A stretch of 64,000 nt of DNA from Christensenellaceae bacterium (lineage in GTDB: Bacteria; Bacillota; Clostridia; Christensenellales; CAG-138), in assembly GCA_022510765.1 (NCBI GenBank), contig JAFLSU010000008.1, positions 1-64,000 on the forward strand, in the 5' to 3' direction. A model generated the notes under the pieces. The model searched no databases. It was not told where the DNA came from and worked only from the letters and a program-made list of their open reading frames with translations. The position numbers and the translations under genes are program-made. Numbering within the stretch: position 1 is the first letter of the stretch; each line of letters opens with the position of its first letter. This document shows positions 45,081 to 53,323 of the stretch, piece by piece.

Positions 45081-45223
45081 CGATAAGTGCGACCACTTAA
45101 AACTCAAATCTTTATTTTTGGGGCCGGATATGTTATCATTTTAGACATTATTGAACAAGGAACGGAATCGAAATGAACATTAAGCGTTTTTTCGGTGATA
45201 AGAACTTCTACAAGGCGGTGCTT
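45081..45223 (+). repeat. Left copy of an imperfect direct repeat (MATE promoter plus first codons)
   Basis: Gapless match to 47459-47601 (offset 2378 nt). Hand count: 10 mismatches in 45105-45223 and about 9 more in 45081-45104. Confidence 0.9.
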
Positions 45224-45353: not shown

Positions 45354-45429
45354 AGAGGTGTTGCTCCGTTGGTACAGCGCCGCATTTGGGATGCAGGGGT
45401 CGCAAGTTCTAACCTTGTCGCTCCAACCA
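45354..45429 (+). pseudogene. Decayed tRNA-Pro (TGG)-like sequence
   Basis: Anticodon arm CCGCA-TTTGGGA-TGCAG, 5-nt variable loop, T arm GCAAG-TTCTAAC-CTTGT and encoded ACCA are present. Acceptor stem AGAGGTG/CGCTCCA pairs poorly, D stem GCTC/CAGC has a mismatch, and A14 is replaced by C. Confidence 0.7.
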
Positions 45430-45462
45430 AACTCTTTGAAATCAATTGATTTCAGAGAGTTT
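45429..45462. terminator. Long near-perfect hairpin after the tRNA-like sequence and the RT gene
   Basis: AAACTCTT-TGAAATCAATTGATTTCA-GAGAGTTT with one mismatched pair; T-rich on the + strand side. Confidence 0.6.
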
Positions 45463-45498: not shown

Positions 45499-47196
45499 TT
45501 ACTCTTTGCTGTTAGAGTAGTTAGTAATAACCCTAACGATATTGTCTAACATCGGTTTAAAGTTGTCAAAGTTAATATTTCTATAATTTGACTGAATGAA
45601 GTTAGCGAAAATTTCTTTTCCGTAATGCTTTTCTTTATCAGCCTTATCATCTTTCGAAAATGTCTTTCCGGCAATAATGTGATTCCTTATAGATTCATCA
45701 AACAAATCTTCTATTTCACATTCTTTTTTTTCTTGCACCAATTGATGTGTTATAAGGTATAAATTGCCACCATTAATTACTCTTATCCAGCGGTACGTTT
45801 CGAAATCTTTCCTGTCAGATGGGGATGTTTTAATGTGAGAGATAAACGAACCCAAAGGTTTATCCTTGTTCGACAATTCATTATCAAATACAAAAATCAC
45901 AGGATTATAAGCTTTGTTTTTACAATCATTGCTAAATACCTTGAAATAATTTGTTAACCTCGGATTTTTATCTACAAAAAAACTATACAAATTCTTCATC
46001 GCATCAGCACCATCTTGGCTCATGCCAAAAAAATATTTAAACCTTTTCGATCTCTTTAAAAATGCCACCTTAAACTCAAAGTGTCCTTCCGGTGTCTTTT
46101 CGATGAGTTCCGGGTATTCTAAATAAAGGTTTTTCAAAGCAGATTTTATGTACTTAACATCTGTTTTGCCCTCCGTCACAATCACCGGTTTCTCATGTGC
46201 AAAAAAGTATCGATAAAATAAAAATTTTTGATATTGTTTTTCTCGACCATTTAGATTAAACACGGAATGCTGTTGTTCAGAATCCTTGATGTTATTGAAT
46301 TTATCCAATTGATCGATAAAGGAAAACTTTCCTTCTAATTGCCTGATAGTTCCCTCGACCCCATTATTATTAAAACTTTCTTCTTTATATAGCGAATCCG
46401 CCATTGCCCTTACTTGTTTGTAATACCTATGATCAACGCTGAGTTTTTTGTTTACAACCAGTCCCGTTACCGTTTGCCTTGAATCCCTATACTGAACACT
46501 CGTTTTATTAGTGTTGATTTTAAATCCTGCTCGTTCAACCTCATGGGAAAGTTCGCTGTAGAAATATTCCCATTGTTCAACAAGTCGCTTGTCATTTGTT
46601 GAAAAACTTAGGTCATCGGCATATCTCGTATAGTCCAAATGATATTTTTTAGCAAGGGCTAAAACCCTCATATCGAAGATTTGGCAAATAAAATTTGTAA
46701 TGATAGGCGAAGTTGGTGCACCTTGCGGCAACTTTCCCTGATAGCATGTTAACTGAGCCATAACAATCGCCAGGTCGTGAGGTAGTGCGAAATCGCGGTT
46801 TTTTTCAAAGAATCCATACACTCTGCCAAAATGGAAACTATTGAAAAAATCTTGCAGATCAATATTAGCTATGACACGTTTGTTCCTGTGTATCTCGCCA
46901 TTCGTAATAATACTTTTTTCTTTTTCGAAGGCCTGTGCAATATTCGTGTGTATATTGTTTTTCTTGCGCAAAAATTGTTGGTACTGTAAAAGAACATCAT
47001 AAAGTTTTTCCTGTATCTGTTTGAGGTCTCCTGTTGGAGCGCAAATCGTTCTTATTCCCCCAGACTTTTTAGGAATATCAAATGTTTTATAGAAACTATC
47101 GACTTTAGCTGCATACAAAACATAAGTTAACTTGCTGTGAGGAATCTCTAATAAATCAGCTAAATCATTTCTCGTTAATATATGTTTGAAAGTCAT
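45499..47196 (-). CDS. Retron reverse transcriptase fused to a C-terminal TOPRIM-like domain (Ec67/Eco2-like architecture)
   Basis: RT motifs: NGEIH (NAxxH-like), DLQDFF, QGAPTSPIITN, YTRYADDLSFS, TVTGLVVNKK. C-terminal KPVIVTEGKTDVKYIKSAL and VIFVFDNEL resemble TOPRIM E and DxD motifs. TAGGAG SD at 47205-47210. Confidence 0.93.
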   Translation of the reverse strand: MTFKHILTRNDLADLLEIPHSKLTYVLYAAKVDSFYKTFDIPKKSGGIRTICAPTGDLKQIQEKLYDVLLQYQQFLRKKNNIHTNIAQAFEKEKSIITNGEIHRNKRVIANIDLQDFFNSFHFGRVYGFFEKNRDFALPHDLAIVMAQLTCYQGKLPQGAPTSPIITNFICQIFDMRVLALAKKYHLDYTRYADDLSFSTNDKRLVEQWEYFYSELSHEVERAGFKINTNKTSVQYRDSRQTVTGLVVNKKLSVDHRYYKQVRAMADSLYKEESFNNNGVEGTIRQLEGKFSFIDQLDKFNNIKDSEQQHSVFNLNGREKQYQKFLFYRYFFAHEKPVIVTEGKTDVKYIKSALKNLYLEYPELIEKTPEGHFEFKVAFLKRSKRFKYFFGMSQDGADAMKNLYSFFVDKNPRLTNYFKVFSNDCKNKAYNPVIFVFDNELSNKDKPLGSFISHIKTSPSDRKDFETYRWIRVINGGNLYLITHQLVQEKKECEIEDLFDESIRNHIIAGKTFSKDDKADKEKHYGKEIFANFIQSNYRNINFDNFKPMLDNIVRVITNYSNSKE

Positions 47197-47214
47197 AGAA
47201 TACGCTCCTACAGG

Positions 47215-47348
47215 ATAACAGCGTATGGCAACTCTTTACGCGGAAATTACAGCGATCTAAGAGACAAGCAATGATGGATGGACGCAAATGCCGCTACCAT
47301 TTTAGTCAACGCTTGCGAAACACAAGCCCAAAATCTTGCCATACGCTT
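47215..47348 (-). ncRNA. Candidate retron msr-msd ncRNA
   Basis: a1 AGCGTATGGCAA (47347-47336) and a2 TTGCCATACGCT (47231-47220) form a perfect 12-bp inverted repeat enclosing 104 nt. Next to a1: G-ATTTTGG, then 7-bp hairpin GCTTGTG-TTT-CGCAAGC. Next to a2: CTCTT...AAGAG msd-type stem. Confidence 0.9.
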
Positions 47349-47354
47349 GTCGAC

Positions 47355-47383
47355 ATTATAACACATTTTTCTTTATTATTCAA
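47355..47383 (-). promoter_or_regulatory. Sigma-A-type promoter of the retron ncRNA-RT operon
   Basis: Minus strand TTGAAT-N17-TATAAT with extended -10 TGT; predicted +1 falls at or next to a1. Confidence 0.85.
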
Positions 47384-47458: not shown

Positions 47459-47601
47459 CAATAAGCGCAATTACGCGAAACGCAAATCTTTATTTTTTTT
47501 GACAAATATGTTATCATCTTAGACATTATTGAACAAGGAACGGGATCGAAATGAACATTAAGCGTTTTTTCGGCGATAAGAACTTCTACAAGACGGTGCT
47601 T
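47459..47601 (+). repeat. Right copy of the imperfect direct repeat (promoter and 5' end of intact MATE gene)
   Basis: See 45081-45223. Confidence 0.9.
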
Positions 47602-52507: not shown

Positions 52508-53323
52508 TCATTGATTGTCAAATTTTTGCACATATTTACATTTAGGAAAATTAGAACATCCATAGAATTGATTACCCGCATTTGCTCCTCTTTTCGCCGT
52601 TTTAAGAATAAGCTGACCCCCGCATTTTGGACACAAAACTATATCCTGTGATTTATTCGTCTCAGGTTTTGATTCATCCGTAATGCTTGGCGCGGGTATG
52701 GTTTTTTTATATTTTATATTAATGTTTGCAATATGGGCTTCTCTAGTTGCTGCATCAACATTAGTCAGGATTTTAAGCCTGTTATAGATTTCGTCTACCC
52801 TTTCATTCGATAGCACGTCCTCCGCATTTTCCCATATACTGCAAACCGTGGCATAAAGTCCGTCCCTCTTTATCACACGAGCATCCGCGCTATCCAAAGA
52901 TATCTTTTTCAATTCACAGCGTTCAGAAAATACAATTAACGAAAAGAGCGGAATCTCATCTTGCAGATACAAGCCCAACCATTTCATGTGCGTCCTGTTC
53001 TGTTTGATTGGATTATAAAATTGATTCTTTTCCTTGTTTGGTAACATTGCCGTCCAATAGGATGATTTCTCATTTCCAAAAATCCAACCTGAATAATTTT
53101 TGCTTTCGATAACAAAAATACCTTTTTGAGTGATGAATACAACATCAATTTCCGATGTCTCACCATTGTCTTTAGGAACATAAATATTCCTTAAGATTTT
53201 CCCCTTGCGGCCAAACAACCTGACGAAATTAAGTTCTCTCTCTGTAAGCTTCTCACCTCTACGACCTACCCAATTAGCGTCAAAAATTCTATCCAGTATG
53301 ATATCAATTAACCCTTTTGCCAT
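52508..53323 (-). CDS. NERD-domain nuclease-related protein with C-terminal topoisomerase-type C4 zinc finger
   Basis: NVYVPKDNGETSEIDVVFITQKGIFVIESKNYSGWIFG-like NERD core; CPKCGGQLILKTAKRGANAGNQFYGCSNFPKCKY. Confidence 0.9.
   Translation of the reverse strand: MAKGLIDIILDRIFDANWVGRRGEKLTERELNFVRLFGRKGKILRNIYVPKDNGETSEIDVVFITQKGIFVIESKNYSGWIFGNEKSSYWTAMLPNKEKNQFYNPIKQNRTHMKWLGLYLQDEIPLFSLIVFSERCELKKISLDSADARVIKRDGLYATVCSIWENAEDVLSNERVDEIYNRLKILTNVDAATREAHIANINIKYKKTIPAPSITDESKPETNKSQDIVLCPKCGGQLILKTAKRGANAGNQFYGCSNFPKCKYVQKFDNQ

What the first reader, a model, noticed from the sequence alone, without database searches (positions are those of the whole stretch)
45499..47348. Complete candidate retron: RT-TOPRIM fusion with upstream msr-msd ncRNA
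Seen: a single 565-aa protein has RT motifs (DLQDFF, QGAPTSP, YADD), the retron-specific VTG and an NAxxH-like NGEIH, followed by a TOPRIM-like domain (VTEGKTD...VFDNE). The upstream leader carries a classical msr-msd layout. Known: retron RTs fused to TOPRIM effectors, exemplified by Ec67/Eco2, are anti-phage systems. Inference: this is a self-contained RT-TOPRIM defence retron in a Clostridia-type genome, with no separate effector gene needed.
Basis: partly seen in the sequence, partly recalled or inferred. Interest (0 to 1): 0.92.

Follow-up and report, generated by a model that had tools for sequence, protein, structure and literature searches.

The report
Clostridial Ec67-family RT-Toprim retron
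This is a complete bacterial anti-virus "retron" of a well-known type (the E. coli Ec67/Eco2 family), in which one protein both copies a small RNA into DNA and carries an RNA-cutting suicide domain; it adds one more member, in a Clostridia-type genome, but is not a new kind of system.

Summary
On the minus strand, 45499-47196 encodes a 565-aa fusion of a retron reverse transcriptase and a Toprim nuclease. It passes NCBI's curated Ec67-fusion model (633 bits, cutoff 450) and PADLOC's RT-Toprim_I-C model (809 bits). Its AlphaFold model (pLDDT 91) matches the solved Eco2/Ec67 structures over the full length; the C-terminal 248 aa alone match Eco2 at E=2e-26. The upstream ncRNA is real: a covariance model built from 14 relatives, without this locus, finds it at 47218-47349(-) (101.5 bits, E=6e-22) and finds the same element at 79 of 80 further family loci, with heavy compensatory pairing changes. 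Predicted branch G is 47335; predicted msDNA is 66 nt (47233-47298). The RT groups inside the type I-C clade. It is an ordinary new member of a known defence family whose mechanism has been published for Eco2. Two differences from Eco2 are shared by Bacillota members (D-N-E instead of D-N-D in the Toprim site; usually a shorter trimer loop); NGEIH instead of NAxxH is unique to this copy among 82. msDNA synthesis, trigger and phage defence were not testable here.

The parts
47355..47383 (-). predicted sigma-70 promoter of the retron, TTGAAT-17 nt-TATAAT with extended TG
   Evidence: consensus scan, 10 of 12; the number of promoter-like sites in the region is near chance, so its main support is its position just upstream of a1
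47218..47349 (-). retron ncRNA (msr-msd)
   Evidence: held-out covariance model 101.5 bits, E=6.4e-22
47336..47347 (-). a1 arm AGCGTATGGCAA
   Evidence: 12/12 complementary to a2; the arm helix has 12 of 13 pairs with double changes across 79 distinct sequences
47335..47335 (-). predicted branch guanosine (rG15 equivalent)
   Evidence: first base after a1; G invariant in the family alignment and shown as the branch point in Eco2 (PMC12405507)
47311..47327 (-). msr stem-loop GCTTGTG-TTT-CGCAAGC
   Evidence: 7-bp helix, 99.6% of cells paired across relatives, 5 pairs with double changes
47233..47298 (-). msd template, predicted 66-nt msDNA (family median 71)
   Evidence: position equivalence with Eco2 rG52 and dT1
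47220..47231 (-). a2 arm TTGCCATACGCT
45499..47196 (-). RT-Toprim fusion gene, 565 aa (Ec67 family, type I-C)
   Evidence: NF038237 632.6 bits over cutoff 450; PDLC02964 809 bits; 9i2f E=1.5e-110; Foldseek 9lm3 E=4e-49
46270..47196 (-). RT domain (about residues 1-309): NGEIH 99-103, YADD 192-195, VTG 243-245
   Evidence: Pfam RVT_1 at 41-246, E=6.6e-20; tree; boundary approximate, from the AlphaFold model and Eco2 alignment
45499..46245 (-). Toprim effector domain (about residues 318-565): E342 G343 D346 D438 E440 E496 K527
   Evidence: 248 aa alone hit Eco2 9i2f 350-578 at 2.1e-26; residue conservation in 82 members

Best explanation
A complete type I-C (Ec67/Eco2-family) retron. Transcription starting near 47348 makes an ncRNA followed by the RT-Toprim mRNA. 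The RT starts cDNA synthesis from the 2'-OH of the branch G (47335) next to the a1/a2 duplex and copies about 66 nt of msd, leaving a branched RNA-DNA (msDNA). The msDNA stays bound to the RT domain and holds the Toprim domain in an inhibited state. When an infecting phage attacks the msDNA (in Eco2, escaper mutations point to the phage nuclease DenB), the Toprim domain is freed and cuts RNA, which stops protein synthesis and the infection at the cost of the cell. Shown here: gene, domains, ncRNA conservation and family membership. Inferred from Eco2: msDNA synthesis, inhibition, trigger, RNase activity and defence.
For: NCBIfam retron_Ec67_fus 632.6 bits over a cutoff of 450. PADLOC RT-Toprim_I-C 809 bits, 553 of 554 profile positions. 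Solved Eco2 chain E=1.5e-110 over residues 7-558, C-terminus alone 2.1e-26. AlphaFold pLDDT 91.3, pTM 0.85, with five Eco2 chains as the top Foldseek hits, TM about 0.8. RT tree: window among 43 I-C rows that form one side of a branch (support 94). Held-out ncRNA model E=6.4e-22; 79 of 80 other loci carry the ncRNA; 409 doubly changed pair cells against 119 in shuffles, covariation score 0.66 against at most 0.23 when one strand is slid. Eco2 mechanism from PMC12405507.
Against: No expression or phage data. The predicted 66-nt msDNA has no strong DNA hairpin (z -0.2 for a 71-nt stretch; +0.4 for the 66 nt), unlike the long hairpin described for Eco2, although the family as a whole is also weak (mean z -0.35). 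NGEIH has G where 72 of 82 members have A and 9 have S.
Confidence: 0.93

Rival explanations
1. It is a decayed retron: intact to the eye, but no longer making msDNA or cutting RNA, because of the NGEIH change or its rearranged surroundings.
For: G100 is unique among 82 members; the locus lies between a truncated and an intact copy of the MATE 5' end.
Against: The reading frame is full length, every catalytic residue of RT and Toprim is kept, a1/a2 pair perfectly, and the ncRNA scores like that of other members.
Confidence: 0.05
2. It is a retron of another type, or another kind of RT (group II intron, DGR, DRT), that merely looks like Ec67.
For: Retron RT models of types XII and XI also match; a group II RT model gives a weak hit below its cutoff.
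Against: The best I-C model scores 500 bits above the next type and covers the Toprim domain; the RT tree and the Foldseek ranking put it with I-C and Eco2.
Confidence: 0.01
3. Same family, but the Bacillota branch works differently from Eco2: a different oligomer and possibly a specific RNA target such as one tRNA.
For: D-N-E in all 55 Bacillota members with that position against D-N-D in all 23 Pseudomonadota; the loop that carries the Eco2 trimer contacts is usually 14-16 aa here against mostly 26-33 there; another Toprim nuclease, AriB of PARIS, cleaves tRNA (PMC12409363, abstract).
Against: In Eco2 the loop is not sufficient for the trimer and msDNA mediates it (PMC12405507); msr structure and catalytic residues are conserved; E for D is a mild change.
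Confidence: 0.12

Closest known systems
Retron-Eco2 (Ec67), E. coli; PDB 9i2f, 9lm3, 9s1f
   Same: Single RT-Toprim protein; ncRNA with a1/a2 arms, branch G directly after a1, one msr hairpin with a 3-nt loop, msd of 66-67 nt; Toprim E/D/D/E residues; F39 equivalent to F46
   Different: 37% identity (structure alignment); D-N-E for D-N-D; E494 at the S513 position; stretch with the trimer loop about 13 aa shorter; NGEIH for NAYKH
PADLOC RT-Toprim_I-C subgroup PDLC02964 and Bacillota relatives (Listeria, Enterococcus pVEF3, Bacillus cereus, Pseudoflavonifractor, MAG G046)
   Same: About 51-56% protein identity over full length for the closest members; same ncRNA plan
   Different: Nearest RT domain is 62% identical, so this is a distinct member, not a copy of a known one
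RT-TIR (type XII) and RT-Protease (type XI) fused retrons
   Same: Related RT domain and single-gene fusion layout
   Different: Different effector; about 300 against 809 bits

Membership tests
Retron type I-C / Ec67 (Eco2) family | Retron-clade RT with YADD, VTG and NAxxH | tested here: met
   NAxxH is present as NGEIH
Retron type I-C / Ec67 (Eco2) family | C-terminal Toprim domain fused to the RT | tested here: met
   Pfam's own Toprim model does not reach significance for this protein
Retron type I-C / Ec67 (Eco2) family | Upstream msr-msd ncRNA with a1/a2 arms and a branch G | tested here: met
Retron type I-C / Ec67 (Eco2) family | Passes the curated family cutoff | tested here: met
   NF038237 632.6 against 450
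Retron type I-C / Ec67 (Eco2) family | Makes 2',5'-branched msDNA | not testable with these tools
   needs expression and debranching
Retron type I-C / Ec67 (Eco2) family | Toprim RNase activity and phage defence | not testable with these tools
   taken from Eco2 (PMC12405507)
Retron type I-C / Ec67 (Eco2) family | Self-inhibitory 3:3 trimer as in Eco2 | not testable with these tools
   loop with trimer contacts is shortened in most Bacillota members
Group II intron or DGR reverse transcriptase | RT closest to group II intron or DGR RTs | tested here: not met
   group_II_RT_mat 44 bits against cutoff 300; tree; Foldseek ranking, with DGR and group II far below Eco2

The most novel reading that the evidence does not exclude
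The Bacillota branch of RT-Toprim retrons, including this one, assembles differently from Eco2 (no loop-mediated trimer contacts, weakly structured msDNA) and has a retuned Toprim active site (D-N-E) with its own RNA target.
Probability: 0.12. Interest if true: 0.4.

Novelty: new member of a known kind. Interest (0 to 1): 0.2.

Why it matters
It is a clean, complete member of the Ec67 family from a Clostridia-type lineage, with ncRNA boundaries supported by covariation. The covariance model and the clade-specific differences (D-N-E, short trimer loop) let one ask whether what was learned from one E. coli retron holds across the Bacillota branch of the family.

Tried and rejected
Rfam scans gave no retron family hit for the leader, so the ncRNA was tested with a model built here. 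A search with the single protein found no relatives in genome or viral contigs; the alignment query then found 80. A single-sequence AlphaFold model was useless (pLDDT 32) and was replaced by the 34-sequence one. The empty insertion site could not be shown: in congeners apeB and the MATE gene are not neighbours within 1.5 kb. The neighbouring tRNA-like sequence was considered as a part of the system and rejected: none of ten relatives has a tRNA hit downstream of the retron.

Full report
What is there. The minus strand carries one 565-aa ORF at 45499-47196 behind an AGGAG ribosome-binding site and a leader of about 150 nt. The curated NCBIfam model for the Ec67 RT/endonuclease fusion scores 632.6 bits (cutoff 450) and PADLOC's RT-Toprim_I-C model 809 bits end to end. 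Pfam sees only the RT; Pfam's Toprim model is too weak for this family (3 of 34 members reach E<0.1). The Toprim claim was therefore tested separately: the last 248 residues alone match the solved Eco2 protein at E=2.1e-26. The AlphaFold model (34 sequences, pLDDT 91.3) has five Eco2 chains as its best matches in the PDB, TM about 0.8 over the whole length, ahead of all other retron RTs.

The ncRNA. The arms a1 (47336-47347) and a2 (47220-47231) are 12/12 complementary. Leaders of 14 relatives (proteins 37-55% identical to this one) align to a common plan: a1, branch G, ATTTTG, a 7-bp hairpin with a 3-nt loop, TTGAC..AAAAYGG, a variable msd, TAATGAG, a2. A covariance model made from these 14, with this locus left out, finds the leader at 101.5 bits (E=6.4e-22) and the same element upstream of 79 of 80 further family genes (a few of the 80 genome loci may repeat a training sequence, for example L062 is the same contig as G046). 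On that set 93.9% of pair cells are standard pairs (73.5% in shuffles), with 409 doubly changed cells (119 in shuffles); sliding one strand collapses the score. That alignment was fitted to the model, which leans towards the structure, but the unfitted 14-sequence alignment also gave 17 of 22 pairs with compensatory changes. The structure is thus under selection. Mapping Eco2's published positions (rG15, rG20-rU42, rG52, dT1; PMC12405507) onto it puts the branch at G47335 and a 66-nt msDNA at 47233-47298; the family median is 71 nt. The letter-by-letter mapping of the msd start rests on my recollection of the Eco2 ncRNA sequence, which agrees with the numbering in the paper.

Placement. In an RT tree of 69 rows the window sits with I-C members of Clostridia (nearest: MAG G046, Avoscillospira, Pseudoflavonifractor). 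The I-C rows form one side of a branch (support 94); two fused-RT rows come next and group II-like rows lie far away (quick method, several open forks). The I-C copy in a congener (G399) is not its closest relative, and only one of ten congeners carries one, which points to horizontal gain.

How it likely works. From Eco2 (PMC12405507): msDNA and RT-Toprim form a self-inhibited complex; phage interference with the msDNA (escapers map to denB) is proposed to release a Toprim RNase that halts phage late expression. The catalytic residues are kept here: YADD, F39 (F46 in Eco2), E342, D346, D438, E496; K527 is conserved in all members that have the position and is the likely catalytic lysine. Everything from msDNA synthesis onward is inference.

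Differences from Eco2. All 55 Bacillota members with the position have D-N-E, all 23 Pseudomonadota D-N-D. The stretch that holds the Eco2 trimer contacts is usually 14-16 aa in Bacillota and mostly 26-33 in Pseudomonadota. NGEIH is unique to this copy. The msd, as DNA, is no more structured than shuffles here and only slightly so in the family. These are traits of a family branch or small changes and do not alter membership.

Surroundings. No other retron part is needed or seen nearby; neighbours look like housekeeping genes (five of them were scanned against PADLOC). The element lies between a truncated copy of the MATE gene's start (45083-45223) and the intact gene (47461-47601), 87% identical, and next to a degenerate tRNA-Pro-like sequence.

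Verdict: observation and assignment confirmed; a new member of a known kind whose type member has a solved structure.

Noticed in passing
45083-45223 and 47461-47601: 141-nt direct repeat, 87% identical: the promoter region and first ~17 codons of the MATE gene at 47551 occur a second time, broken, on the other side of the retron. The retron block may have arrived with or through a duplication; congeners do not show apeB and MATE as neighbours within 1.5 kb.
   Followed up: partly
45354-45426 (+): Degenerate tRNA-Pro(TGG)-like sequence with encoded CCA (26.4 bits, below the Rfam cutoff of 29), followed by a strong hairpin at 45429-45462. Two of the nearest I-C relatives (L066, L095) lie about 265 nt downstream of an intact tRNA-Pro(TGG), so tRNA genes may mark arrival sites.
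   Followed up: partly
L069, L071, L075, L091: Other Bacillota members of this retron family also sit close to a tRNA or tmRNA gene.
   Followed up: no
52508-53323 (-): Protein with a NERD-like nuclease region (weak PglW hit) and a zinc-finger-like C-terminus; no link to the retron seen.
   Followed up: no
L065:1471-1509: abiF RNA-like hit (33.6 bits, cutoff 37) close to the I-C retron of Claveliimonas bilis: a possible second defence RNA next door.
   Followed up: no
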